This document shows, one piece after another, positions 45,746 to 61,725 of a stretch of DNA of 64,000 bases (its first letter is position 1; each line of letters opens with the position of its first letter). The stretch is from Amycolatopsis sp. DSM 110486. Its GTDB lineage: Bacteria > Actinomycetota > Actinomycetes > Mycobacteriales > Pseudonocardiaceae. Under the pieces are notes generated by a model. That model did no database searches. It saw only the letters and a list, made by a program, of their open reading frames with translations, and was not told where the DNA came from. The stretch spans positions 9,727,001 through 9,791,000 of the forward strand of contig NZ_CP080519.1 in NCBI RefSeq assembly GCF_019468465.1, given 5' to 3'. Both the position numbers and the translations under genes were made by a program.

Positions 45746-48700
45746 TCAGCTCAGGTTGGAGTTGCGCTTCCCGATGTCCTTGCCGTAGTTCTTCCACCAG
45801 TTGTCGTCCGGCGGGTTGGCGTGGTAGGTCGACGTCCACTTACCCTTGGTGCTGTCGTAACCGGTCGTGATGTCGTAGATGATCCCGTCGTCCTGCGGGA
45901 CCTTCTTGTAGTCGTTGATCACCGTGTTGTTGCGAGCTTCGACCTCGGCTTTGTACTGCTGCTCGAAGTCGTCCTGATCCTTCTTTGCAGCCTTGTAATC
46001 CGCCGCCAGGGAGTCTCGCTCCTTTTCCAGCCGCGTGATGTCGTCGGCCGAAGCGTTGGGGTCTTTCTTGGCGTTCTTCAGCTCCTGGACCTTGTCCATA
46101 CCATTGTTCTTGAGGTCGGTGACCGTTTCCTTCTGGTTTTCGAACTTGGTCTCCGCGTCCGAAACCCTCTGATCGAACGGGCGGGTCTTCTCGTTGGTCA
46201 TCTTCCCGACTTGTTCGGCCATGTGGTTCTGGTGCCACGACTCGTCCACGTTGCCCGGGAATTTGGTCCCCGACCCGCCCTTATACGGATTCATCCCGAG
46301 GAAGCTGTTGCCGCCCTGCTGGTGTTTGGCCTGGTGGGAGTCGACGTTCACGTCGACCCCGTTGTGGTCGCCGAGGTTGTACGATTCCTTGTCCGCGCTC
46401 AGCTTTCCATTGCCGCCCTTGCCACCGCTCGAACTGGCCGACGTGTCGGTGTCGTTCGCCTTGTTCTTGCCCTTGCCCTTCTTGTCCGGGACGTTGCTCG
46501 CATCGTTGCTCGCGCCCGGCCGGTCAGAGGCGCCACCGGAACCGCCGCCGCAGGCGCCCTTCTTGCCCTTCGTCGGTGCAAGGCCCAGCGGGTCGCAGTC
46601 CGCGAACGGGTTGGGGACGTACGCGACCGGGTTCTCCGCGGGCCCGAGCCCGAGCGGGTCCTGGCTGAGGTACCGGCCGGTGGCCGGGTCGTAGTAGCGG
46701 TAGACGTTGTAGTGCAGGCCTGACTCGCTGTCGGCGTACTGGCCGGGGAAGCGAAGCGGCGTGAGCGTCGCGCCGCCGGCGCGGTCCCAGAGCCCGCCGC
46801 TGTCGCGCCACACCGTGGATCCGTCGGCGTCGAGCAGTTCGGTCGGGGTGCCGAGCAGGTCGGTGACGATGGAGAAGAACTGCTCGTCCACAGTGGACGG
46901 TTGGCCGACCTGCAGGATCGGGCGGTCGTCCTCCGGGTGGTACTCCCACGTGGTGACGGTCCGCGCACCCGACTCGTCGATGTGGCACTGCTCCACGAGC
47001 TGTGCACCGCTCCACGAGAACTCGAAGGTCTCGGCCACCCGCCACGAACCCGCGGCGGGCACCAGCCGCTGCTTGCCGATGCGGCGGCCCACCGGGTCGT
47101 AGCGGTACGTCCACCGGTCACCTTCGGGGGTGAGAAGCCCGATCAGCCGATCGTGCGCGTCCCAGGTGTAGCGCCACGCCCGGTCGCCCTCGCGCCGCAG
47201 GACCACGCGTCCCTGCAGGTCGTGTTCGTACGCGGTGGCGCCCGCGCCCACCAGGGTGTTCCTCGTGTAGCGGTGGACCGCAGCGGCCACCGGTTCGGCG
47301 GACTCGACGACGTTGCCCAGGCCGTCGTAGCGGTACTGCCGGCTGCCCTGCGGCGTCCGCAGCTCCACCACCCGGCCGACGGCGTCGAGGACCAGCTGCG
47401 TCGGGCCGGCCACCTCGTCGTCGATGGCGGTGAGGAAGCCGTCACGCCGGTAGGTGAACCGGCGGCTCCGCTCGGCTCCGCCGGTCCGCACCGACTGCGC
47501 GACGAGGTTCTCGTCGCTGTCGAAGGCGTGCGAGACGACCACCCGGCCGTCGATCGTCCGCACGATCTCCCGGCCGCTTTCGTCGTGGCGGAAGCGCACG
47601 GAGTGCCCGCCCACCGTCACCGCGTCGGGATTGCCCGCGGCGTCGAAGCTCCACACGCTCTCCGCCCCGGAAGGCGTGCGCCGCACCGTCGCGCCGCTTT
47701 CGTCGCGGCTGGTGGTCACGGTGCGGCCGTCGACGGTTTCGCTGAGCAGAGTGCCGTCGGGCGCGTACTCGACCTGGAGCTCGACGTCGCCGATCACGGC
47801 GTGGATCATCCGCCCGACCGGGTCGTACGCGTAGCGGGTCGTCCCGGTCGGAGTGCGCCGTTCGAGGACGTTGCCGAGCTGGTCGTAGACGTAGTCGGTC
47901 TGGTCGCCGGCTCCGTTGACCGACCGGACCAGCTGCCCGGCGCGGTCGTAGTCGAACCGCAGGACACGCCCGTCGAAGTCGACCTCTTCCACGAGCCGGC
48001 CCGCCGCGTCGTGGCGGTAGCTCCACTGAAGACCCAACGGGTTGGTCACCGAGGTGAGCCGCAGCTCGGTGTCGTAGGCGTAGGTGGTCCTCGCGCCGGA
48101 AGCGTCGATCGACGCCGTCCGCAACCCGAACGGCCCGTACTCGGTCCGGCTCGCGAACCCGGCACCGTTGACGTGCTCGACCTCGTTGCCCTCCGCGTCG
48201 TACCGCCGGGCCTCCCGGATCCCGGACGGGTGGACCCGCAGATTCTCCTCGCCCTCGACGGTCCAGCCGAGGCGGACCTGCCGCCGTGACCGGTTGAGCA
48301 CGGTGGTCGCGCGGCCGAACACGTCGCGCGCGTCCGGCGCCGCGGCGGCGCCGGTGCTCGTCGTCGCGACCACCGGGCTCGCGTTCTGGCGGTCGATCAC
48401 CTCGGTGTAGCTCAGCGCGGTCGACACCCCGAGCGGGTCGGCCAGCGGATCGGGCACGTTGTCGCCGCTGTACGTGCGGCTCCAGTAGCGGTCCTCGTCC
48501 CGCACCGTGATCGCCAGCTCCGTGTCGTCGCCGCCGAGCTCGACGACGGAACCGTCGGGACGGGTCACGGACATCAGCTCGCCGTCGGCGTCGTAGGAGT
48601 ACGCCGTGGTCCGGCCGAGCGGGTCAACGCGTTCGAGCAGCCGGTCGTAGCGGTCCCAGACGTAGCCCGTCACGTTCCCCATCGGGTCGACGCGGCGCAG

Positions 48701-50794
48701 CATCTGGTTCGCCTCGTTGAGGTGGTACTCGGTGACGTTGCCCAGGGAGTCGGAGTAGCGCGTGATCAGCCGCTCGCGGTCGTAGGCGAAGGCGCCGCTG
48801 AAGTAGCCCTGCGGGCCCACCGTGCGCACGCAGCGGCCGTCGGCGTCGTAGACGTAGCGGTACCAGGTACCGGTGCGGTCCTGCCAGCCGACCATGCGGC
48901 CGTGCACGTCGTAGTCGTAGCCCGCCGCCAGCCCGGACGAGTTCGAGGCGTTCGTCAGCTGGCCCAGCTTGTTGTAGCCGAACCTGGCGACGGTCACCGA
49001 CACGTCGCCGGCCGCGGCGGTGACGTCGACCCCGGTGATCCGGCCCTGCTCGCTGAGCAACCGGACCGCACGACCGTCGGATCGGGTGAGCCCGGCCGGC
49101 ACGCCGGACGGACCGTACTCGAAGTCGATCCGGTCGCCGCCGGCGTGCTCGATCGCGACGAGGGGGAACACCCCGGGACGCGACCCCGGGACCGCGGCGA
49201 ACTCCAGGTCCACCTGCCCCGCCGGGTCGGCCAGCCGGTATCCCGACTCGGTGGCGACGAGCGGCAGCCGCGGGCCCTCGACCGGGAGCACGGCCGCGTT
49301 CGCGCCCGGCAGCGGGTACACGAGGATCATCCCGTCGGCCGAGAAGTAGCAGGCGTTCTCGTCGTCGAACTCCAGGCGCTGGTCCAGAGTGGACGCCCAC
49401 GTCGCGCCGAACAGCCGGCCGGCGCGGTAGGACGAGATGTGCGTGCGCTCCAGCGAAAGCTCCGGCAGCCCGGGCATCACCAGGTCGAGCACCGTCATCA
49501 CCACGTCGCCGGTCGCGATGTCGATCGGGTCCGACTCGCACACGCGGTCGTCGGTGCCCACCGCGCCATCGCGCGGTGGCTCCGGCTTGTCGGTCACTCC
49601 CCTCGAGTTCCCGGCGCCGGAGGTCTTGGTGCCCGACCCGGTGTCGGGCGCCTTGGTCGGCGGCGGGATCTCGCCACCGCCACCGGTACCACCACCGGTA
49701 CCGCCGCCCTCGCTCGAGGTGTGGGTGGTGTCGCCGGTTTTCCCCGGGGGCGTGCCACCACCACCGGACTCGCCGCCGCCCGCGCCGGACGCGTGGGTGG
49801 AGTCGTCGCCACCGGACTTGCCCGGAGGTGGGGTGTAGTCCTTCGGGTCGCCCTCGTACCCCGAGGCCGAGGTGCTGTCGTCGCCGCTCGATTTCCCCGG
49901 GGGCGGGGTGTAGTCCTTGGGCGTGCCTTCGTAACCGCCGCCCTTCGGGGTGCCGCCGCCGTCGCCGCCGGGGGTTTTGACCGGCGGGGCCTTCGGGGTG
50001 CCGGAGAGGTCACCGGCCTTGGGCGGCGGGGTGACCTTGCCGCCCTTGAGACCCTTGAACGCCTTGCCCGCGTCCTCGAACAGCGTCCCGGCCTTCTTCA
50101 GCAACGGCACCAGCGCCTTGAGCGCCTTCACCAGCTTCGTCACGAGGCCGGTGATCTGCGACGCCGTCTTCGCCACCGCGCTCACGACCTGCGGCACGAC
50201 CCAGGCGAGACCGATGCCGAGGGTGAACACGACCTGCAGGGCCCAGCTGATCATGTGCCCGATCAGCTCGGAAATGATGTCGCGCACCAGCGTGCGGACC
50301 GCGGCGACCACCTCACCCGCGGTCTTCACCCCGGAGGACGCGCCTTCACAGCCCTTCTGCGCCGCCTGCAGCGACGTCGCCAGGTCCTGCCCCCGCTGCC
50401 GGTAGGCGTCCGAGGCAGACCCGGACCACGACTGCAGGTCGGCGTTGATCGCGTCGGTCAGGTCAGAGGAAACGGAGCCCAGTTCCTTGGCGACGTTTGC
50501 CCACGTCTCCGACTGCGCCTTGATCTGATCCGCGTTGCCGGTCAACCCGTTCAACGCGTCCTTCAGCGGGCCGACGTGCTCCATCAACCACGACACACCG
50601 GCCGCCAGGATCGCGCCGAACGGGTCCATCGCCATCGACAACGCATCCAGCGCCGTCCCGACCGCACCCATCGCCACCGACGCCCAGTCACCCGACTCGA
50701 TCGCCGTGGACAGGTCGTTGGCGGTTTCCAGGAGCGAAATCCCCGAATACGCCTTCGTCGAGTCCTGGGTTTGCGCGATCAACGGATTGCTCAC
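45746..50794 (-). CDS. WXG-headed Rhs/YD-repeat protein, probable T7SS-exported polymorphic toxin
   Basis: 1,682 residues. Residues 1-155 are a helical WXG-like head (SWSGSASDAYRQR); about 160-260 is a hydrophobic helical region; about 270-430 is a Gly/Pro/Asp linker with two near copies of KDYTPPPGKS. The YD-repeat shell follows, ending in the core marker YRYYDPATGRYLSQDPLGLG. The last 280 residues are the variable tip: Lys/Asp/Glu-rich, with a coiled-coil stretch and an aromatic end (DDNWWKNYGKD), visibly lower in GC than the shell. The fold of the tip is unrecognised. GTG at 50794 has AGGAGG upstream. A DNA-, RNA- or membrane-targeting toxin is expected from the architecture, but no immunity gene follows. 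Confidence 0.87.
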   Translation of the reverse strand: MSNPLIAQTQDSTKAYSGISLLETANDLSTAIESGDWASVAMGAVGTALDALSMAMDPFGAILAAGVSWLMEHVGPLKDALNGLTGNADQIKAQSETWANVAKELGSVSSDLTDAINADLQSWSGSASDAYRQRGQDLATSLQAAQKGCEGASSGVKTAGEVVAAVRTLVRDIISELIGHMISWALQVVFTLGIGLAWVVPQVVSAVAKTASQITGLVTKLVKALKALVPLLKKAGTLFEDAGKAFKGLKGGKVTPPPKAGDLSGTPKAPPVKTPGGDGGGTPKGGGYEGTPKDYTPPPGKSSGDDSTSASGYEGDPKDYTPPPGKSGGDDSTHASGAGGGESGGGGTPPGKTGDTTHTSSEGGGTGGGTGGGGEIPPPTKAPDTGSGTKTSGAGNSRGVTDKPEPPRDGAVGTDDRVCESDPIDIATGDVVMTVLDLVMPGLPELSLERTHISSYRAGRLFGATWASTLDQRLEFDDENACYFSADGMILVYPLPGANAAVLPVEGPRLPLVATESGYRLADPAGQVDLEFAAVPGSRPGVFPLVAIEHAGGDRIDFEYGPSGVPAGLTRSDGRAVRLLSEQGRITGVDVTAAAGDVSVTVARFGYNKLGQLTNASNSSGLAAGYDYDVHGRMVGWQDRTGTWYRYVYDADGRCVRTVGPQGYFSGAFAYDRERLITRYSDSLGNVTEYHLNEANQMLRRVDPMGNVTGYVWDRYDRLLERVDPLGRTTAYSYDADGELMSVTRPDGSVVELGGDDTELAITVRDEDRYWSRTYSGDNVPDPLADPLGVSTALSYTEVIDRQNASPVVATTSTGAAAAPDARDVFGRATTVLNRSRRQVRLGWTVEGEENLRVHPSGIREARRYDAEGNEVEHVNGAGFASRTEYGPFGLRTASIDASGARTTYAYDTELRLTSVTNPLGLQWSYRHDAAGRLVEEVDFDGRVLRFDYDRAGQLVRSVNGAGDQTDYVYDQLGNVLERRTPTGTTRYAYDPVGRMIHAVIGDVELQVEYAPDGTLLSETVDGRTVTTSRDESGATVRRTPSGAESVWSFDAAGNPDAVTVGGHSVRFRHDESGREIVRTIDGRVVVSHAFDSDENLVAQSVRTGGAERSRRFTYRRDGFLTAIDDEVAGPTQLVLDAVGRVVELRTPQGSRQYRYDGLGNVVESAEPVAAAVHRYTRNTLVGAGATAYEHDLQGRVVLRREGDRAWRYTWDAHDRLIGLLTPEGDRWTYRYDPVGRRIGKQRLVPAAGSWRVAETFEFSWSGAQLVEQCHIDESGARTVTTWEYHPEDDRPILQVGQPSTVDEQFFSIVTDLLGTPTELLDADGSTVWRDSGGLWDRAGGATLTPLRFPGQYADSESGLHYNVYRYYDPATGRYLSQDPLGLGPAENPVAYVPNPFADCDPLGLAPTKGKKGACGGGSGGASDRPGASNDASNVPDKKGKGKNKANDTDTSASSSGGKGGNGKLSADKESYNLGDHNGVDVNVDSHQAKHQQGGNSFLGMNPYKGGSGTKFPGNVDESWHQNHMAEQVGKMTNEKTRPFDQRVSDAETKFENQKETVTDLKNNGMDKVQELKNAKKDPNASADDITRLEKERDSLAADYKAAKKDQDDFEQQYKAEVEARNNTVINDYKKVPQDDGIIYDITTGYDSTKGKWTSTYHANPPDDNWWKNYGKDIGKRNSNLS
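50333..50794 (-). repeat. head repeat of the Rhs gene, copy A
   Basis: The first 154 codons of the intact Rhs gene are nearly identical to those of the shrunken copy at 60432-60893, in the same orientation. The two lie about 10 kb apart and could recombine. Confidence 0.85.
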
Positions 50795-51034: not shown

Positions 51035-51622
51035 TCACCAGGGGTTGTTGTCCTGCTCGTCCGGGTCGATGCCACCTCGGCGGCGCGGCGCAGCCGGACC
51101 GGCCGGGCCCGGCGGAGCGGCGGGCGGCGGCGGGGTCGCGGCGCCACCGGCCGACGGCGCGGGTGGCACCGGCGGCGGGGTCGGGGCCGGCGGCTCCGGC
51201 TCGCCCGGGCCGTCTTCGGGCTCGTCGAGGTCCGGGAAGCGGCTGCGGAGGCTGCCGAGCAGCGCGGAGCGGGTGTCCTGGTCCTCGTCGCCGAGGTTCT
51301 CGGTCATGACCTCGGCCACGCGCTGGGTGATGCCCGACTGCGCGCGCCGCATGGTGTCCAGCACCATGCGGGCCAGCTCCTCCTGCGGCATGGTCCGCGT
51401 CTTGGACCCGAAGACCAGGTCGGACACGACCCCGTCGGCGCCGACGGTGACCTTGACGGTGCCGTCGGGGCTCGACGCCGTGAGGCGCAGCCGTTCGGTC
51501 TCCTGCTGGGCGGCCGCGTAGCGCTCGGCCTTGCGGGCGAAGCCCGCCGCCCACTCGTCCATCCGCCGGATCGCCTCGTCGGGGTCCCTGATCAGGTCAC
51601 CCAACCCTCCCGCACTGGTCAT
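51035..51622 (-). CDS. YbaB/EbfC family-like protein with Pro-rich tail
   Basis: 195 residues. The first 110 fit the YbaB/EbfC fold found beside actinobacterial ESX genes: an N-terminal helix (RRMDEWAAGFARKAERYAAA), then a beta pair (GTVKVTVGADGVVSDLVFG) and a C-terminal helix. The last 80 are Pro/Ala/Glu-rich and disordered, ending DPDEQDNNPW. Bacterial YbaB proteins bind DNA; in T7SS loci they may instead be chaperone-like. ATG at 51622 has GAGGAG upstream. Fifth gene of the minus-strand cluster. Confidence 0.75.
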   Translation of the reverse strand: MTSAGGLGDLIRDPDEAIRRMDEWAAGFARKAERYAAAQQETERLRLTASSPDGTVKVTVGADGVVSDLVFGSKTRTMPQEELARMVLDTMRRAQSGITQRVAEVMTENLGDEDQDTRSALLGSLRSRFPDLDEPEDGPGEPEPPAPTPPPVPPAPSAGGAATPPPPAAPPGPAGPAAPRRRGGIDPDEQDNNPW

Positions 51623-51706
51623 GGTGTTCGTACTCCTCGATCTGCCTGCTGCTGAACTGTTCGGGTGGCGCCGGGCGAAGCGTCGCCCGGCGCCAACTGG
51701 CACCGG

Positions 51707-52348
51707 CTACTCGGTGACCGTGCCGATCCTGAACGACGACGGGTTCACCACGGGCTCTTGGTCGGGCACCGTGGTACCGATGCGAGGCGACAGCGGCGCC
51801 TGCAACGGCTCGCTCGGCACGGTCGTGCCGATGCGGTACGACGGGCGATCGGCCTCCAGCGGCGCCTGCAACGGCTCGCTCGGCACCGTGGTGCCGATGC
51901 GGGGCGACAGCGGCTCCTGCAGCGGCTCGCTCGGGATCGTCGTGCCGATCCGCGGCGACAGCGGTTCGCTGCCGGACGGGTAGCTGCTCGACGAGTAGCC
52001 GTCCGAGCCCCCGCTGGTGAAGCCCGCCGCCTCGTCGCTGTTGGCCAGCTGGTTGAGGAACGGCTGCGCCTCCTGGGAGTCGCCGTCCATGTACGCCTGC
52101 GCCGTGGTGCGGACGTTGTCCGCAGTGGTCTGCATGCCTTCGGCCGCGGCGCTCACCGCGTCCTTGGCCTGCTCCCCCGTCGGGTTCACGATCGGCGGGA
52201 GAAACGCGCACAGCAGGCCGTAGGCGTCGTCGTTCAACGCGTAGTCCGCCGCCTGCACGGCGTTGTTCAGCCGGTCCACGAGCCCGTCGAGGTGGCTGGC
52301 GTGCGCCGTCAGCTCGTCGGGTTCGACGTCGAAGCCTCCGCTGGTCAT
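51707..52348 (-). CDS. ESX-1 secretion-associated-type protein with tandem RIGTTVPSEPLQ repeats
   Basis: 213 residues. The first 105 are a WXG100-like helical hairpin (MTSGGFDVEPDELTAHASHL, then NVRTTAQAYMDGD), like ESX-1 secretion-associated (DUF2580-type) proteins. A Ser/Gly linker leads to a tail with four to five repeats of about 20 residues built on SPRIGTTVPSEPLQ, ending SFRIGTVTE. The repeats are also visible in the DNA. Probably a T7SS substrate exported with its neighbours; the repeat tail may bind an envelope component. ATG at 52348, seven bases after the PPE-like gene. Confidence 0.78.
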   Translation of the reverse strand: MTSGGFDVEPDELTAHASHLDGLVDRLNNAVQAADYALNDDAYGLLCAFLPPIVNPTGEQAKDAVSAAAEGMQTTADNVRTTAQAYMDGDSQEAQPFLNQLANSDEAAGFTSGGSDGYSSSSYPSGSEPLSPRIGTTIPSEPLQEPLSPRIGTTVPSEPLQAPLEADRPSYRIGTTVPSEPLQAPLSPRIGTTVPDQEPVVNPSSFRIGTVTE

Positions 52349-52355
52349 CCCCGCC

Positions 52356-54299
52356 TCACTTCCAGTCCTTGTTCTTCCAGTCACCGATCACCGGCGGCGC
52401 GACGACCTCGTCCGGGGCGAAGAAGCTCGGGTCGTCCGACTCCACGTAGTCGGCGATCTTGTGCTCCTTGTCCTCCGGGCCCTTGCCGCCCTTCTGGCCG
52501 GCACCCATGCCGCCCATGCCCGGCGAACCGGCCGCGCCCTTGGCGCCCGCCTGTGCGCCACCGCCTCGCGCGGCCAGCTCCTCCTCGGTCGCCGCGGCAC
52601 CGGAACCGGCACCCGCGCCGGCCGCGCCACCGAGGCCTGCGCCCTTGATGCCGGCGCCACCACCGATGCCGCCGATCCCGCCGCCACCGGCACCGCCGCC
52701 ACCGCCGAGGCGGCTGCTGATGCTGTCGCCGTTGATGCCGCCACTACGGCCGATGGTCGGGATCTTGCCCGAGCCCCCGCCGAGGCCGCCACCGGAACCG
52801 CCGAGCGAGCCACCGCCGACGCCCGTGCCGGGGTTGAACGGCGGCGGGGTGAAGCCCGTGCCGGAACCCGAGCCGCCGCCCAGGCCACCGCCACCGACAC
52901 CGCTGCCCGGGTTGAACGGCGGCGGGTTGAAGCCACCGCCGCCGATCCCGGTACCGCCGGGACCGTCGGGCACGTTCAGCGGCGGGGGCGTGAAGCCCGA
53001 AGTCTTCGTGGTCTCGTCGTTCGGCAGGCCGGAGCCGCCGCCGAGGCCGCCACCGCCCAGGCCACCGCCACCGGCGCCGCCCGGACCGTCGGGCACGTTG
53101 AGCGGAGGCGGGTTGAAGCCGCCGGCGCCACCACCCGCACCGCCGCCGGCGCCGCTGCCGGAACCACCGCCGAGACCACCGCCACCGGCGCCGCCCGGAC
53201 CGTCGGGCACGTTGAGCGGAGGCGGGTTGAAGCCGCCGGCGCCACCACCGGCACCGCCACCAGCGCCGCCGCCCGCGCCACCACCGGCACCGCCGATCGG
53301 CAGCCCGTCGGGACCGATGGGCCGGCCGTCCGGGCCGATCGGCAGGCCGTCGGGGCCGATCGGAAGACCCTGGCTCCCGGCACCGCCACCGCCGGCGCCA
53401 CCGGCGCCGCCGCCGTTCGCGGCGGTCGAGCCCGGCAGCTTCGGCGGAGCCGCGAACGCCGGCGTCACGACGGCCGAGCCGATCGTGTGGTCGTACTGCG
53501 TCATCAGCTGCGCCGCCTGCTGGCGCGCGGCCTGCTGCTCGGTGAAGGTCGCCATCGCCTTGGACGCCTGCGCGGCGTACTCGGTGGGGTCCTTGATCTG
53601 CTGCAGCTGCGCGTTGGCGTCCTGCACGTTGAACTGCACGGGCGGGTTCGCGGCCATCGCGATCTGCGTCTGGTTCAGCGCCTGCGAGTGGATCTCCTGC
53701 TGGCGCCCGGCCAGGGTCGCGCCCTGGGCGGTGGTGCCGAGCCACTTGCCGACGTTCGCGAGGTGCTCGCGCGCCGCGTCGCCGCCCGCGCCCTGCCAGT
53801 TGCTCGTGCTGGCGGAGATCGCCTGCGCGAGGTTCTGCTGGTGCGTGGCCAGGTCGTTGCCGACCTGCACCCACTCCTCCGACGACTCGGCCACGGTGCC
53901 CGAGTTCGCCTGCTGGGTGATGGCCTGCTGCATCTGCTCGTGCGTCGCCTGCGACCAGTCGGTGTAAGGCGCGCCGTCGGTCTGGCGCAGCTGGAGACCA
54001 CCGTCGAGGCCGGACTTCGCCTCCACGAGCCGCTGCTCGTAGAGCTCCTGGATCTTGTCGTTGCGCGTCTTCGGGTCGACGACGGGGCCGAGCCAGCCCT
54101 GGGCGATCTCGTCGTCGACCTCCTTGGCGGCGTCGGCACGGATCTGGTCACCGGAGGCGACGTCGTCCGGCTTGACCGGGCCGACGAAGTACTTCGACGA
54201 CGAGTCGGCCGTCACTTCGTAGTAGGGGCTGTGCGGGTCGTAGTCCGGTGACGACGGGTCTGAAACCGCCGAGGTGGACGTGTCGGTTGTCGTGGCCAC
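52356..54299 (-). CDS. PPE-like helical protein with long Gly-rich repeat region
   Basis: 647 residues. The N-terminal 280 are helical with SNWQGAGGDAAREHLANVGK, the WxG-turn expected of a PPE/WXG100 relative. About 295-540 is Gly-rich with repeats of FNPPPLNVPDGPGG and of LPIGPDG. The C-terminus is again charged, ending FAPDEVVAPPVIGDW. The start is GTG at 54299 with AGGAGG five bases upstream. EspG, encoded two genes earlier, normally chaperones PPE proteins, which supports T7SS export. Confidence 0.8.
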   Translation of the reverse strand: MATTTDTSTSAVSDPSSPDYDPHSPYYEVTADSSSKYFVGPVKPDDVASGDQIRADAAKEVDDEIAQGWLGPVVDPKTRNDKIQELYEQRLVEAKSGLDGGLQLRQTDGAPYTDWSQATHEQMQQAITQQANSGTVAESSEEWVQVGNDLATHQQNLAQAISASTSNWQGAGGDAAREHLANVGKWLGTTAQGATLAGRQQEIHSQALNQTQIAMAANPPVQFNVQDANAQLQQIKDPTEYAAQASKAMATFTEQQAARQQAAQLMTQYDHTIGSAVVTPAFAAPPKLPGSTAANGGGAGGAGGGGAGSQGLPIGPDGLPIGPDGRPIGPDGLPIGGAGGGAGGGAGGGAGGGAGGFNPPPLNVPDGPGGAGGGGLGGGSGSGAGGGAGGGAGGFNPPPLNVPDGPGGAGGGGLGGGGLGGGSGLPNDETTKTSGFTPPPLNVPDGPGGTGIGGGGFNPPPFNPGSGVGGGGLGGGSGSGTGFTPPPFNPGTGVGGGSLGGSGGGLGGGSGKIPTIGRSGGINGDSISSRLGGGGGAGGGGIGGIGGGAGIKGAGLGGAAGAGAGSGAAATEEELAARGGGAQAGAKGAAGSPGMGGMGAGQKGGKGPEDKEHKIADYVESDDPSFFAPDEVVAPPVIGDWKNKDWK

Positions 54300-54309
54300 G
54301 AGATCCTCC

Positions 54310-54726
54310 TCAGGTCAGCTCGTCGACGGGAAGCCGGTTGATGGTGTCGCGCGTTCCGGCTTCGGTGTTGCTGTAGTTCTGCTTCGCCAGCTTGATCGCC
54401 TCGACGTATGTCGGGAACTCGTCGCGCGCCGCCTGCAGCTGCGTGAGCAAGCCCTGGGCGTCGCTGGCGGTGTTGAGCATGTGGTTCGACACCCATTGAC
54501 CGGTCGCCGTGGACGACAGAGCCGGGGCAGTGCCCAGCTTCTGCAAAGCGTCCCACCGCGCCTGAAGGGTGTCGATCACACCTTCGAGCGCCTCGATCAT
54601 CTGGTTGCCGGTGGTGTCGTCCACCGCGAAACTGCCGGTCTGCGCCAATCGCTTCAGCTCGGTCCCGGACAACTGCGGTGTAAATTCACGCGCAGTCATC
54701 TTCGCCGGGGTCGCGTCGTCGGCCAC
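54310..54726 (-). CDS. small T7SS-cluster protein (138 residues)
   Basis: Unrecognised beyond context. It is predicted mostly helical: REFTPQLSGTELKRLAQTGS, MIEALEGVIDTLQARWDALQ and LLTQLQAARDEFPTYVEAIK, i.e. a hairpin of long helices as in WXG100-type partners, but without a clear WxG. GTG at 54726 has GGAGGGAG upstream. Placed between the EspG and PPE-like genes, where PE-like or EsxB-like partners usually sit, so it may pair with the PPE-like protein (inference). Confidence 0.65.
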   Translation of the reverse strand: MADDATPAKMTAREFTPQLSGTELKRLAQTGSFAVDDTTGNQMIEALEGVIDTLQARWDALQKLGTAPALSSTATGQWVSNHMLNTASDAQGLLTQLQAARDEFPTYVEAIKLAKQNYSNTEAGTRDTINRLPVDELT

Positions 54727-54755
54727 CGGATCTCCCTCCTCTTGGTGCGCGCGCG

Positions 54756-55604
54756 TCAGTAGACGGCGGCGATGGCGTTCTGCACGGCGCGGGCCACCTC
54801 GGACCGCCCTGCGGGGACGTACTTCGCGCTCAGGTCACCGGCCTCGCCGGTGGTGGTGTGGATCAGGTAGCGGCCGTCCTGCGTGTCGAGCCAGCTGAGC
54901 GGGTCGGCCGCGCGCAGCTCGCCGTGCCGGCCCCAGCCGGTGACGGTGACGTGGCCGCCGCCGAGGCGCGGCGCGGCCATGACGCGCTCCAACACCTCGG
55001 TGCTGCCAGGCGTCGGTGTCACACGGGGGTCGGTGCGGCTGGGCCGCACGGTCCCGCGGACCTCGATCATCCCGAACGCGTCCGTCTCTTCCTCGTCCTC
55101 GGCCGCCTCGGCGATGCGCCGCGCGGTCATCGCCGACACCGCACGCGTCGCCTGCCGGCTCACCTCGTGGGCGCCGGTCGTCGCGGCGCGCGCCGGAGGT
55201 AGCACGCCGGTGACGACGTCGACGAGGTCCTCGTCGGCGAAGAGGGAGAACAGCAGGTCGTCGGTGCGCGGGTTCTGCGTGATCCCGAGCGCCTGCCTGC
55301 CGTCACTGAGGGCGAGCACCGCGATGTCGGCGCCGACGCCGTCGACCCCGGCCACCGCGACGGAGACGCGCGGCCGGGCGAGCAACCCGAACGCCGTCTG
55401 CACGTGGGGGCTGAGCTCACCATGAGTGGAGAGCCGCTTGTCCTCCATCGCCCGGTAGACCTGGGTCGCCAGGCGGACGAACCGGATGGGATCCGAAGGC
55501 ACCGTGCCGATTCGCAACGGGTACTGGCGGATGTCACCGCCGGTTGCCTGGCTGACTACAAGAGCTTCGAAGACGTCGAGAACGAACTCGAACCTGTCCG
55601 CCAT
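54756..55604 (-). CDS. EspG family T7SS chaperone
   Basis: 282-residue EspG-like protein. Seen: the N-terminal FEFVLDVFEALVVSQ, GLLARPRVSVAVAGVD, and the C-terminal domain with VTGWGRHGELRAADPLSWLD and DGRYLIHTTTGEAG. EspG proteins bind PPE-family substrates in the cytosol and deliver them to the ESX secretion machine. ATG at 55604 follows AAGGAAG at some distance. It is the first gene of the minus-strand cluster. The window has no EccC ATPase or membrane core genes, so export must use a system encoded elsewhere. Confidence 0.82.
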   Translation of the reverse strand: MADRFEFVLDVFEALVVSQATGGDIRQYPLRIGTVPSDPIRFVRLATQVYRAMEDKRLSTHGELSPHVQTAFGLLARPRVSVAVAGVDGVGADIAVLALSDGRQALGITQNPRTDDLLFSLFADEDLVDVVTGVLPPARAATTGAHEVSRQATRAVSAMTARRIAEAAEDEEETDAFGMIEVRGTVRPSRTDPRVTPTPGSTEVLERVMAAPRLGGGHVTVTGWGRHGELRAADPLSWLDTQDGRYLIHTTTGEAGDLSAKYVPAGRSEVARAVQNAIAAVY

Positions 55605-55894
55605 ACCCGAGAGCTTCCTTCCCCACGGCGGGTCGTGCACGGCGCTGCGCCGCGGTCCGGACACCTGCGCAAAAGGGGCGCAGATGTCACTGATCGGAGC
55701 GTAGCAGTCCTGGTGTGACGGGAAATCACCACTCGAACCGGTGCCCGAAAGACCATCCGTCCGTGTCAACCCGGGCACGGCCTTCGCGCCCTTCCGCACC
55801 CATCACGTGGGCCGGAGCCGATTCGGTTCACCGCGATCGGCGAAAAAGTTCACGGACTTCTCCCGGGGTGCCGAAACGGGGTTCGTTCGGGGAC

Positions 55895-58209: not shown

Positions 58210-59202
58210 GTGGAATCTGCTGCAACAAAGCGGTTCCGCGGCGTTGTCCCGGGTATGGCAAGACGGCTGAGATGGACACTGGCTGCCGCGGGGCTCACCG
58301 CGACGGTCCTCACGACGGCGGTCGTCGTCACGGTGAATACGCGCCACGTGACGACGATGCCCGCGGCGCAGACGCTGCCACCGCCCTCGTCCTCCCCCGC
58401 GCCGCCGTCCACGAGCGAACCACCGACGTCGACGACACCACCGACCACTTCCTCGCCTCCTCTGCCCGACCCCTCGGCCGTGGCCGACGATGTAGTCGAC
58501 GCGGTGACCGCCGCGTCGAAGGGCACGAAGGTCGGGCTCGCGGTGTACGACACGAAGACGGGCAAGACGCTCGCGCTGAACAACCCCCAAACCTCGTACT
58601 ACACGGCTTCCGTGGTGAAGCTGCTCATCGCGCTCGACTCACTGTACGACGACGGCACCTGGCAGGTCCCCTCCGGCGACACCGCCGACGAGCTCACCGA
58701 CATGATCTCCGGCAGCAACGACGCCGTCGCCGACAAGCTGTGGGAAGCCGACGGCGGGACCGCGATCGTCGGGCGGATGGCCCACCTCATCGGGCTTTCG
58801 CACACACTCGAACCGACGGACCCGGGCCAGTGGGGCATGACGAAGATGAGCCCCGACGACGTGGTCACCACCTACCGCTACCTCACCGACACCGTCCCCG
58901 ACGCCACGGCACAACCACTGCTCACCGCGATGGCCGACGCGCGCCAGCCCGCCGACGACGGCTACCCGCAGTACTTCGGCATCCCGGACGGCATGCCCGG
59001 CACGACGTGGGAGATCAAGCAGGGCTGGATGATCCTGCGCTCGTCGCTCGTGCTCAACACCACCGGGATCGTCGACTCCCGCTTCGTCGTGGTGCTCCTG
59101 ACGCAGCAGCCGGCCGCCACCTCGTCGGCGAAGGGCCGCGCCGCGGTGACCGCGGGGATCAAGGCTTTGGCGCCGGCACTGGCCGCGTGGACGGCGGGGT
59201 GA
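58210..59202 (+). CDS. secreted or lipid-side serine hydrolase (beta-lactamase-like)
   Basis: 330 residues. An N-terminal signal anchor (RWTLAAAGLTATVLTTAVVV) is followed by a 50-residue Pro/Ser/Thr linker and a class-A beta-lactamase fold: YYTASVVKLL with the SxxK serine and lysine, ISGSNDAV at the SxN position, and KQGW in place of KTG. It may be a peptidase or esterase of the envelope rather than a lactamase, because the Omega-loop Glu is not obvious. GTG at 58210 has AGGA upstream; ATG at 58255 is an alternative that still keeps the signal sequence. Confidence 0.8.
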   Translation: MESAATKRFRGVVPGMARRLRWTLAAAGLTATVLTTAVVVTVNTRHVTTMPAAQTLPPPSSSPAPPSTSEPPTSTTPPTTSSPPLPDPSAVADDVVDAVTAASKGTKVGLAVYDTKTGKTLALNNPQTSYYTASVVKLLIALDSLYDDGTWQVPSGDTADELTDMISGSNDAVADKLWEADGGTAIVGRMAHLIGLSHTLEPTDPGQWGMTKMSPDDVVTTYRYLTDTVPDATAQPLLTAMADARQPADDGYPQYFGIPDGMPGTTWEIKQGWMILRSSLVLNTTGIVDSRFVVVLLTQQPAATSSAKGRAAVTAGIKALAPALAAWTAG

Positions 59203-59330: not shown

Positions 59331-60149
59331 TCAGCGGCGCTTAGCGATGTCCGCCCACGACGGTTTCGGCGGCGCCGTCGAACTGCTCGGCGCCGGGCCC
59401 GAAGGAGCGGGAGCAGGAGCCGGAGCCGGTGTGGGCGTCGGAGCGGGTGCGAGAGCCGGGGCGGGAGCCGCCGGTGCGGGAGCCGGCGCCGGGGCCGGCG
59501 CGGCCTGCGGCAACGGGCGCGCGGGCAGCGTGGGGTCCGAGTGCCCCGACGGGCGGATCCCGAACTGCCCCAGCACGTGGTCGCAGGTCGTGCAGGGCGG
59601 GAAGTAGCGGCCCTGCCGGTCGCTGAGCCCGCCCGTCTTGCTGTCGACACCCGCGATGCCCATCCGGCCGCCGTTGAGGTCGTCGAGCCGGTTCTGCAGC
59701 GCCTGCCGCGTCAGGGGACGGCCGCGGCTGTCGTGCAGTGCCTGGTTGACCGCGTCCATCTCGGCGCACCCGCCGTGCTGGAAGTTCTCCGCGCGGCGGT
59801 TCGGCGGCACGTTGTTCAGCGCCTGCGTGAGCCTCGGGTGCTGCGTCGTGCCGCCCGGCAGCTTGTGGGTCTCGGGGTTGCGGCCGTTGAGCCGGTTCTG
59901 GTTCGCGTACGACCCTTGCCGGCCGGTGCGGATGTCGTGGTTCCCGCGGCCGCTGAAGCCGTAGAACACCGAGTTCTGGTCGTGCCCGGCCGGACGCAGC
60001 ACCGACGCCATCGCGGTCGGGAAGTTGTTGCGCGACGCGATGTCCGCGACCTCTTCCGCTTCGGACTGCACGCACATGAACAGGCCGAGCGGGTCGAGCA
60101 TCGTCGTCGGGTTGGGCACATACGCGCGGGGGTTGGGCCCCGCCCGCAT
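59331..60149 (-). CDS. orphan Rhs C-terminal fragment with nucleic-acid deaminase-type domain
   Basis: The intact 272-codon frame begins inside the Rhs core end (PNPRAYVPNPTTMLDPLGLF). It continues into a deaminase-superfamily domain: GGCAEMDAVNQAL with Cys128 and Glu130, and FPPCTTCDHVL with Cys186 and Cys189, the CxE...PCxxC zinc/catalytic pattern of YwqJ-like toxin deaminases. A Pro-Ala-rich tail ends SWADIAKRR. ATG at 60149 has no ribosome site, so expression alone is doubtful. The whole is best seen as the surviving toxin tip of the pseudogene below. No immunity gene is visible. Confidence 0.5.
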   Translation of the reverse strand: MRAGPNPRAYVPNPTTMLDPLGLFMCVQSEAEEVADIASRNNFPTAMASVLRPAGHDQNSVFYGFSGRGNHDIRTGRQGSYANQNRLNGRNPETHKLPGGTTQHPRLTQALNNVPPNRRAENFQHGGCAEMDAVNQALHDSRGRPLTRQALQNRLDDLNGGRMGIAGVDSKTGGLSDRQGRYFPPCTTCDHVLGQFGIRPSGHSDPTLPARPLPQAAPAPAPAPAPAAPAPALAPAPTPTPAPAPAPAPSGPAPSSSTAPPKPSWADIAKRR

Positions 60150-60431
60150 CCCGAGCGGGTCGCGCGAAAGGTAGTGCGCCTGCGCCGGGTCGTAGTAGCG
60201 GTAGAAGTTGTAGTGCAGCCCGGTTTCCGCGTCGTGGTACTGGCCGGGGAACCGCAGCGGGGTCGTCGCCGGACCGGCCGGGACCGCCGCGCCCGGCTCG
60301 GCGCCTCAGGCCGTGTGGCGCGCGTGCCAGACCACCCGGCCGCCGTCGTCGACGAGCTCCTGGGGCGAGCCCACGAGATCGGTGACGATGGCGTAGAAGT
60401 TCGTGTCCACCCAGCCGCGCTGTGCGTCGGC

Positions 60432-60893
60432 GGAGGAAGCGCCTTCACAGCCCTTCTGCGCCGCCTGCAACGAAGTGCCCAGGTCCTGTGCCCGCTGCCG
60501 GTCCGCGTCCGACGCGGACCCGGACCAGCTCTGCCGATCCGCGCTGATCGCGTCGTTCAGGTCCGACGAGATACCGCCCAGCTCCTTGGCGACGTTCGCC
60601 CATGTCTCGGACTGCGCCGCGATCTGGTCCGCATTGCCCGTGAGCCCGTTGAGCGCGTCCTTGAGCGGACCGACGTGCTCCATCAACCACGACACACCGG
60701 CCGCCAGGATCGCACCGAACGGGTCCATCGCCATCGACAACGCATCCAGCGCCGTCCCGACCGCACCCATCGCCACCGACGCCCAGTCACCCGACTGGAT
60801 CGCCGTCGACAGGTCGTTCGCGGTTTCGAGCAGCGAGATCCCTGACTACGCTTTCGTGGAATCCTGGGTCTGCGCGATCAGCGGATTGTTCAC
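60432..60893 (-). repeat. head repeat of the Rhs gene, copy B
   Basis: Nearly identical in encoded protein to 50333-50794 over 154 codons, apart from the nonsense codon 16 and a few substitutions near the end. Same strand as copy A, about 10 kb apart. Confidence 0.85.
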
Positions 60894-60941: not shown

Positions 60942-61640
60942 TCAATTGGTCTGGACCCCCGCCCGGCGGGCCCGCTCGATGTCCGGACCGCGGTAGAGCC
61001 GCTCCGGAATGGACGCCAGCGTCGACTCGCGCACCTGCGGGCCCAGGCCGTAGAGCTTCTGGAAGCTCATGATCAGCGGACGCCACGCGTCGGGGTCCAC
61101 GCGGTCGTCGGTACCGGGCAGGCGGATGTCGTCGTGGACGAAGACGCGCTGGACGCGGACTTCCAGGCCCACGATGGAGCCGTGCTGGGTCTCGTCGTCA
61201 GCGGCGAAGGGGTGGGTGGCCTCGAGGACGGCCTCCATGGCCACCGGGCACTCGGCGACGCGTGGCGGCGCGACCGTCTCGGACGAGACGGGGGTGAGGC
61301 CCGCGCGGCCGAACTTGTCGGCGACGTGGAAGTAGCCGCGCTGCTGCTTGCCCGGGGGCACCGGGTCCGAGCCTGTGGTGAGCGCGAGCCGGTCGACGGC
61401 CGCGGCGAGAGCGGCCGAAGGCAGGTTCAGCACGCATTCGCGCGTGCGCCGCAGGTTCTGGGTGGTCTTCGAGCGCGCGCCCAGGCCGAGCATGGCTCGC
61501 CAGCCGAGCCAGAACGCCGAGGACATCGGGGCGAGGTTCGCCGAACCGTCCTCATTGGTCGTGGAGATCAGCACCACGGGGGTGCCGAAGTACAGGATTC
61601 CGGGCTCGATGGCCGTGTGCAAGGGAAACGTCGTGTTCAC
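60942..61640 (-). CDS. flavin reductase-like domain protein
   Basis: 232 residues with the FMN-binding split-barrel pattern of flavin reductases: FGTPVVLISTTNEDGSANLA, PMSSAFWLGWRAMLG, NLRRTRECVLNLPSA, and VGLEVRVQRVFVHDD. It binds FMN and may reduce flavins or act on an unknown small molecule. GTG at 61640 has GGGG just upstream; the frame to 61700 is not family-like. It lies 85 bases after the third FAD subunit in the same direction, so it could be the last gene of that molybdenum-hydroxylase operon. Confidence 0.83.
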   Translation of the reverse strand: MNTTFPLHTAIEPGILYFGTPVVLISTTNEDGSANLAPMSSAFWLGWRAMLGLGARSKTTQNLRRTRECVLNLPSAALAAAVDRLALTTGSDPVPPGKQQRGYFHVADKFGRAGLTPVSSETVAPPRVAECPVAMEAVLEATHPFAADDETQHGSIVGLEVRVQRVFVHDDIRLPGTDDRVDPDAWRPLIMSFQKLYGLGPQVRESTLASIPERLYRGPDIERARRAGVQTN

Positions 61641-61725
61641 GTTCCCCAGTCTGCGCACGCCGGGCGCGCTCGGCTGGCGGGAAACGGACGTCACGATCAC
61701 GCCCGTTCCCCACCGGCCGAGCGGC

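What the first reader, a model, noticed from the sequence alone, without database searches (positions are those of the whole stretch)
59331..60893. Silent Rhs cassette: same head, shell removed in frame, deaminase toxin tip, two stop codons
This copy keeps the head and core-end sequences that flank the shell in the intact gene, but carries a different tip with CxE and PCxxC deaminase motifs. It looks like an orphan tip cassette that could swap onto the intact gene by recombination in the shared core end. The in-frame 1,100-residue deletion and single-base nonsense changes (TAG at codon 16, TGA at 60306) may keep it silent.
Basis: partly seen in the sequence, partly recalled or inferred. Interest (0 to 1): 0.75.

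Follow-up and report, generated by a model that had tools for sequence, protein, structure and literature searches.

The report
Broken shell-less Rhs deaminase toxin gene
A bacterial toxin-like gene here has lost the protein shell between its predicted delivery head and its deaminase-like tip and carries two stop codons, so it is likely a decaying relic rather than a spare tip that could be swapped onto the intact gene nearby.

Summary
59331-60893 (-) is one frame of 521 codons with TAG at codon 16 and TGA at 60306-60308. Its first 154 codons match the head of the intact Rhs gene (88% DNA identity). A net 1,140 residues of shell are missing in frame, and the tip scores as a Pfam YwqJ deaminase (45.7 bits, cut-off 25.9) with CxE and PCxxC motifs kept.

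The swap-cassette idea is not supported. The core ends are about 70-74% identical, with a longest exact run of 22 nt to the intact gene and 28 nt to any paralogue compared. The copy lies upstream of the intact gene and has no room beside it for an immunity gene.

The insert is absent from the same place in two relatives. The junction is not peculiar to this record: a second, unnamed database protein (P0003) has it too and is open across the second stop. I read the copy as a recently silenced, internally collapsed type VII-type Rhs toxin gene. One independent open analogue (P0033, Streptomyces) and a shell-free head gene in the same genome leave open that compact head-tip toxins are a real design.

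The parts
60432..60893 (-). head module, codons 1-154 (GTG start at 60891-60893), type VII/WXG-type N-terminus shared with intact Rhs and other paralogues
   Evidence: 87.9% DNA identity to intact gene and to L016, starting exactly at the start codon; the intact gene's head scores WXG100_2 29.7 bits, cut-off 27; the orphan piece alone scores WXG100_ESAT6 16.4, cut-off 44.85
60846..60848 (-). first in-frame stop, TAG, codon 16
60431..60432 (-). junction where the shell (net 1,140 residues relative to the intact gene) is missing, frame kept
   Evidence: same junction in database protein P0003
60309..60431 (-). first part of Rhs core end (RHS protein motif), before second stop
   Evidence: PF03527 31.4 bits, cut-off 27.9, in P0001
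60306..60308 (-). second in-frame stop, TGA
   Evidence: database protein P0003 is open across this point
60078..60305 (-). rest of Rhs core end, ending in DPLGLF at 60078-60095
   Evidence: TIGR03696 74.7 bits, cut-off 32.5; coordinates
59520..60077 (-). deaminase-type tip; CxE in GGCAE 59760-59774 and PCxxC in PPCTTC 59583-59600
   Evidence: PF14431 45.7 bits, cut-off 25.9; motifs aligned with relatives
59334..59519 (-). proline/alanine-rich tail ending SWADIAKRR
   Evidence: translation
59331..59333 (-). terminal stop TGA
58210..59202 (+). flanking beta-lactamase-like gene (PF13354 20.1 bits, below cut-off 22)
   Evidence: neighbour of the flavin reductase gene in G003 and G009
60942..61700 (-). 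flanking flavin reductase-like gene
   Evidence: PF01613 52.4 bits, cut-off 27
45746..50794 (-). intact Rhs gene with same head, full shell and different tip (1682 aa)
   Evidence: (RHS repeats, DUF6531, WXG100_2)
51035..55799 (-). gene cluster between the two Rhs copies: YbaB-type, EspC-type, PPE-like, small Esx-like and EspG-like genes
   Evidence: PF02575, PF10824 over cut-off, PPE below cut-off; the last two named by recall, no family hit (Pfam for the Esx-like gene; NCBIfam for the EspG-like gene); cluster found near the flavin reductase in relatives

Best explanation
This is a copy of an Rhs toxin-like gene that lacks the shell and carries two in-frame stop codons, and it is likely a decaying pseudogene rather than a working swap cassette. 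Likely history: a type VII-type Rhs gene with a deaminase tip came to lie between two ordinary genes in this lineage; an in-frame deletion with little shared sequence at its ends fused codon 154 of the head to the core end; nonsense changes then stopped translation, the second of them probably after this strain split from the source of P0003. Shown: the anatomy, the junction, the two stops in this record, the empty site in two relatives, and a second database protein with the same junction and no second stop. Inferred: silence, order of events, mechanism of insertion and deletion, that P0003 comes from another strain, and that the tip once was an active antibacterial deaminase delivered by type VII secretion.
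For: Single frame with only two premature stops. Coding signature kept: third-position GC 0.87 in the head, 0.95 in the core end, 0.96 in the deaminase, 0.74 in the tail. CxE and PCxxC motifs kept. More replacement changes in this head than in its two nearest paralogues: 15 silent, 7 replacement, 1 stop, against 13 silent and 1 replacement in each of the two (pooled Fisher p 0.03). Empty site: in G003 the two flanking genes lie end to end, in G009 another small gene sits there. No match to either piece or to the intact shell at E 1e-6 in the 15 relatives' loci fetched around the flavin reductase. P0003 (379 aa, unnamed source) has the same junction, is open across the second stop and differs from the window at 2 of 324 residues after it. 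No room beside the gene for an immunity gene. Head remnants and broken Rhs genes occur elsewhere in this genome and genus.
Against: The two stops rest on one assembly; no reads were seen. P0003 could be another strain or another assembly of this one, so the second stop could be an error in one of them. The replacement excess is weak: more distant paralogues on open frames also show replacements (L018 31 silent to 8, L017 20 to 18, against intact = L016). The deaminase part could still be made from an internal start (272 aa from ATG 60149). The empty-site comparison rests on the two relatives, of 15, in which the beta-lactamase-like neighbour was found; three of the 15 loci are cut short by contig ends.
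Confidence: 0.65

Rival explanations
1. Compact toxin: the collapsed head-tip gene was, or in sister strains still is, a working shell-free type VII toxin, and only this strain lost it recently.
For: P0003 keeps an open frame over 379 aa. The same head occurs in this genome on an open shell-free gene with a Gln_amidase papain-fold toxin (L018). P0033 from Streptomyces brasiliensis is an independent 523-aa fusion of a T7SS_signal/WXG100 head to an RHS core end and an AHH nuclease tip. The frame was kept across the deletion.
Against: P0003 starts inside the head, so no full head-to-tip open frame is known; (142 candidates, length limit 567 aa) found none. No adjacent immunity gene. Weak sign of relaxed constraint in the head.
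Confidence: 0.2
2. Reserve tip cassette that can recombine onto the intact Rhs gene.
For: Same orientation, shared head and core end on one chromosome; an orphan Rhs tip is activated this way in Salmonella (PMC3967940, passages seen).
Against: Core-end identity about 70-74%, longest exact run 22 nt with the intact gene and 28 nt with L016, against 522 bp at 95% in Salmonella; copy lies upstream, so duplication or gene conversion would be needed first; no adjacent immunity gene; no close match to this tip in 198 other genomes (best 36% identity) nor in the close-relative pattern scan of 84,980 species genomes.
Confidence: 0.06
3. One or both stops are sequencing or assembly errors.
For: Single-base changes in an otherwise open, coding-like frame; P0003, which may be another assembly of the same or a near strain, lacks the second stop.
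Against: P0003 differs at 2 further residues of 324, which suggests another strain; the genome is near-finished, 2 contigs, completeness 100, contamination 4.17. Reads not available.
Confidence: 0.13

Closest known systems
Orphan rhs-CT modules of Enterobacteriaceae (Salmonella LT2; PMC3967940, passages seen)
   Same: Rhs fragment with core end and a different toxin tip, on the same chromosome as a full-length Rhs
   Different: here a head with start codon is kept, it lies upstream of the intact gene, core-end identity is low, no adjacent immunity gene, two stops
Type VII-associated Rhs toxins (LrhA of Listeria, PMC10327511; abstract and section 15 read)
   Same: type VII association, DUF6531, Rhs repeats and variable tip in the intact gene of the window
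   Different: in this copy the DUF6531 and repeats are gone; actinomycete WXG/PPE-type head; no adjacent immunity gene
YwqJ-like deaminase toxins (PF14431; B. subtilis YwqJ, PMC8321402, passages seen)
   Same: deaminase domain over Pfam cut-off, CxE and PCxxC motifs
   Different: Rhs core end rather than LXG head; no paired immunity gene; broken frame. B. subtilis YwqJ stops growth without visible effect on chromosome or rRNA, so the substrate of this family is open
P0033, 523-aa Streptomyces brasiliensis protein
   Same: type VII-type head fused in frame near the end of an Rhs shell, core end and toxin tip
   Different: other head family and junction, AHH nuclease tip, keeps one RHS repeat, open frame

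Membership tests
Rhs polymorphic toxin | RHS-associated core end before a variable tip | tested here: met
   TIGR03696 74.7 bits, cut-off 32.5; PF03527 31.4, cut-off 27.9
Rhs polymorphic toxin | YD/RHS-repeat shell enclosing the tip | tested here: not met
   no RHS_repeat or DUF6531 hit in either piece; net 1,140 residues absent
Rhs polymorphic toxin | type VII/WXG-type delivery head | tested here: inconclusive
   88% DNA identity to the head of the intact gene, which scores WXG100_2 over cut-off; orphan piece itself only 16.4 bits to WXG100_ESAT6, below cut-off 44.85
Rhs polymorphic toxin | adjacent immunity gene | tested here: not met
   128 and 48 nt to neighbours; an immunity gene elsewhere in the genome is not excluded
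Enterobacterial-type orphan rhs-CT | long near-identical segment shared with main rhs for recombination | tested here: not met
   longest exact core-end run 22 nt to intact gene, identity about 74%
Enterobacterial-type orphan rhs-CT | located downstream of main gene with linked immunity gene | tested here: not met
   upstream by about 8.5 kb (coordinates); no adjacent immunity gene
YwqJ-like deaminase (PF14431) | profile score over gathering cut-off | tested here: met
   45.7 bits versus 25.9
YwqJ-like deaminase (PF14431) | CxE and PCxxC zinc/catalytic motifs | tested here: met
   present in this tip; alignment A1 with 11 relatives, in which E is invariant and the two cysteines of the second motif nearly so
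YwqJ-like deaminase (PF14431) | deaminase fold | tested here: inconclusive
   single-sequence model mean pLDDT 38.8, unusable; no PDB relative by sequence
YwqJ-like deaminase (PF14431) | deaminase activity | not testable with these tools
   needs enzyme assay

The most novel reading that the evidence does not exclude
Shell collapse is a recurrent route by which actinomycetes turn giant type VII Rhs toxins into compact head-plus-tip toxins: in-frame deletions fuse the delivery head straight to the core end and tip, as in this locus and in the source of P0003 and, independently, in P0033, alongside shell-free head genes such as L018.
Probability: 0.15. Interest if true: 0.6.

Novelty: new member of a known kind. 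Interest (0 to 1): 0.33.

Why it matters
It corrects a tempting story: a tip on a neighbouring broken copy is not automatically a reserve warhead. It gives an example (junction shared with a second database protein, second stop not) of how type VII-type Rhs toxin genes decay, and a concrete question: whether heads and tips can work without the shell.

Tried and rejected
Swap cassette through the core end: not supported, on low identity, topology and lack of close matches to the tip elsewhere. Copy of the neighbouring intact gene: not supported, since L016 is equally close in the head (87.9% each) and the core end is about as far from all paralogues compared. A recurrent junction in G017 (head match ending at residue 138): rejected, the contig ends there. 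Orphan tips as counterparts: nine short-frame core ends picked from the list were read; none had a head in the same frame, though L104's frame runs off the stretch fetched. Fold model of the tip: failed. PDB relatives: only weak beta-lactamase matches, E 0.087 or worse. Defence-system models: none. Imm6 in own genome: none, but nothing rang in the control genomes either, so not informative. In the search of 60 genomes with the head piece, only this locus was listed as matching over all 179 residues (the list is cut, and own genome is one of the 60).

Full report
WHAT IS THERE. The minus-strand frame 60893->59331 is 521 codons including its terminal stop, with TAG at codon 16 (60846-60848) and TGA at 60306-60308. 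The start is GTG; the upstream DNA reads GGGGAGGGG shortly before it, a possible ribosome site by eye. I searched the two open pieces apart: P0001 (60309-60845) and P0002 (59334-60305). P0001 matches PF03527 RHS (31.4 bits, cut-off 27.9). P0002 matches PF14431 YwqJ-deaminase (45.7 bits, cut-off 25.9) and TIGR03696 Rhs_assc_core (74.7 bits, cut-off 32.5). The CxE and PCxxC motifs are present and align with 11 relatives. After the deaminase comes a Pro/Ala-rich tail.

HOW IT RELATES TO THE INTACT GENE. The intact gene (45746-50794, 1682 aa) has the same head, DUF6531, RHS repeats, a core end and a different tip. Head DNA is 87.9% identical over 463 nt, beginning exactly at the start codon and ending at 60431; L016, a 1700-aa Rhs elsewhere in the genome, is equally close. 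From there the copy jumps to core-end sequence; a net 1,140 residues are missing with frame kept. By eye the jump shows almost no shared sequence. The core end is 74% identical to the intact gene over 194 nt and 73% over a further 63 nt, and 70-71% to L016, L017 and L021 over 316-359 nt; a 39-nt piece matches L006 at 85%. Longest exact runs in the core end are 22 nt (intact) and 28 nt (L016), whereas the head shares an 82-nt run with each. So the core end, unlike the head, is not close to the intact gene.

THE HEAD FAMILY IN THIS GENOME. The genome (10.98 Mb, unnamed, 2 contigs) has 17 places matching P0001 and 7 matching P0002. The same head sits on full Rhs genes (intact gene, L016, L017), on an open shell-free gene with a Gln_amidase papain-fold toxin (L018), and on remnants (L019, L020). 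Relatives also carry broken copies (G028 L122 with a frame change in the head, G019 L103 with head and core end in different frames). Shell-free and broken head genes are therefore part of the background.

THE SITE. The window's order is EspG-like ... beta-lactamase-like, [this copy], flavin reductase. One search covered 40 genomes for the flavin reductase and 23 matched, this one included; I fetched loci of 15 of the 22 others. None of the 15 matched P0001, P0002 or the intact shell at E 1e-6, though three are cut by contig ends; at E 1e-5 the intact head matched weakly (46-49% over 39 residues) inside the PPE-like gene of two. The beta-lactamase-like neighbour was found in two: in G003 the two genes lie end to end, in G009 a different small gene lies between. 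One search printed 6 of the 15 loci; 4 of the 6 show all five genes of the YbaB/EspC/PPE/Esx/EspG cluster near the flavin reductase, the other two part of it (one is cut short). So this copy looks like a lineage-specific insert.

AGE OF THE PARTS. A search of 5.8 billion proteins with the tip region gave 2 proteins of 142 candidates: P0004, identical to the end of P0002, and P0003, 379 aa, with the same junction, open across the second stop, and 2 differences in the 324 residues after it. P0003 stands for 4 member sequences; its source is not named, so it may be another strain (likelier, given the 2 differences) or another assembly of this one. If another strain, the collapse is shared and the second stop is not. 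P0003 begins inside the head, so the state of the first stop there is unknown. Codon comparison of the heads gives 15 silent, 7 replacement and 1 stop change here, against 13 silent and 1 replacement in each of the two nearest paralogues (pooled Fisher p 0.03). That is a weak sign: the more distant L018 (31:8) and L017 (20:18), both on open frames, also carry replacements. Pairwise dN/dS is 0.13-0.14 between this head and its two nearest, 0.07 between those two, and up to 0.29 with L017.

IS THE TIP ELSEWHERE? Not in close form. The tip alone matched 6 of 199 genomes: this one, and five genomes of two other genera of the order at 31-36% identity over the deaminase half (17 candidates scored per genome at most). 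PF14431 matched 7 of 60 genomes, this one included, 6 over the cut-off; some of those frames are thousands of residues long and were not examined. The scan of 84,980 species genomes with short patterns from P0002 gave 6 loci, none matching beyond residue 122, before the CxE motif. With all of P0002 as query, 43 of 60 genomes matched (own included), mostly through the core end; ten listed matches ran past residue 139, to 140-201, at 35-46% identity, and two weak ones (G058, G005) lie in or run into the low-complexity tail; G005 did not appear with the tip alone. YwqJ domains behind Rhs core ends are known in the database: 5 of the 120 listed proteins (of 1583 hits), P0003 included; P0009 and P0114 are 35% identical to P0002 over core end and tip.

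CAN IT SWAP? In Salmonella an orphan tip with its own immunity gene, downstream of the main gene, is proposed to recombine through 522 bp at 95% identity after duplication (PMC3967940, passages seen). Here identity is low, the copy is upstream and same-oriented, and there is no room for an immunity gene: 128 nt to one neighbour and 48 nt to the other. Another YwqJ-type deaminase in this genome (L110) does have a SUKH-3 immunity gene next to it. YwqJ deaminases are listed with Imm6 and SUKH immunity partners (PMC3482391, passages seen). A direct-repeat deletion between the two core ends would give shell-less head plus intact tip, so the swap needs duplication or conversion (inference).

MOST LIKELY STORY AND ITS LIMITS. 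A collapsed, recently silenced type VII-type Rhs toxin gene. The bolder alternative, that head-tip collapse yields working compact toxins, gains from L018 and from P0033, a 523-aa Streptomyces brasiliensis protein with T7SS_signal (42.7 bits, cut-off 27), one RHS repeat, RHS core end and AHH nuclease (46.3, cut-off 22.3). By precomputed domains P0033 is the only one of the 120 listed proteins with both a WXG/T7 head and an RHS core end, and an assembly collapse there was not excluded. Activity, delivery and silence are untested; the substrate of the family is open, since induced B. subtilis YwqJ stopped growth with no effect seen on chromosome or rRNA (PMC8321402, passages seen). Literature searches for type VII Rhs toxins in actinomycetes and for shell-deleted Rhs genes (listings, plus abstract and one section of PMC10327511) showed nothing that describes this form; most subscription papers are not held.

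Noticed in passing
L110 1645-3065 (G000:C1 about 8432144-8433564): PT-HINT plus YwqJ-like deaminase gene with a SUKH-3 immunity gene at its end: a paired deaminase system in the same genome.
   Followed up: partly
L018 1708-3621 (G000:C1 about 1064207-1066120): Open gene with the same type VII-type head but no Rhs shell, ending in a Gln_amidase papain-fold toxin.
   Followed up: partly
window 45746-50794: The intact Rhs gene is followed by an opposite-strand gene, with no co-directional immunity gene seen directly downstream; its tip relative in G021 (L036, 42% identity) is also followed by an opposite-strand ORF.
   Followed up: partly
P0033 (Streptomyces brasiliensis, 523 aa): Independent in-frame fusion of a type VII-type head to an Rhs core end and AHH nuclease tip.
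   Followed up: partly
L122 1290-1762 and L103: Head split by a frame change in G028, and head and core end in different frames in G019: other broken members of this gene family.
   Followed up: no
window 59334-59519: Pro/Ala-rich tail ending in SWADIAKRR after the deaminase domain; role unknown.
   Followed up: no
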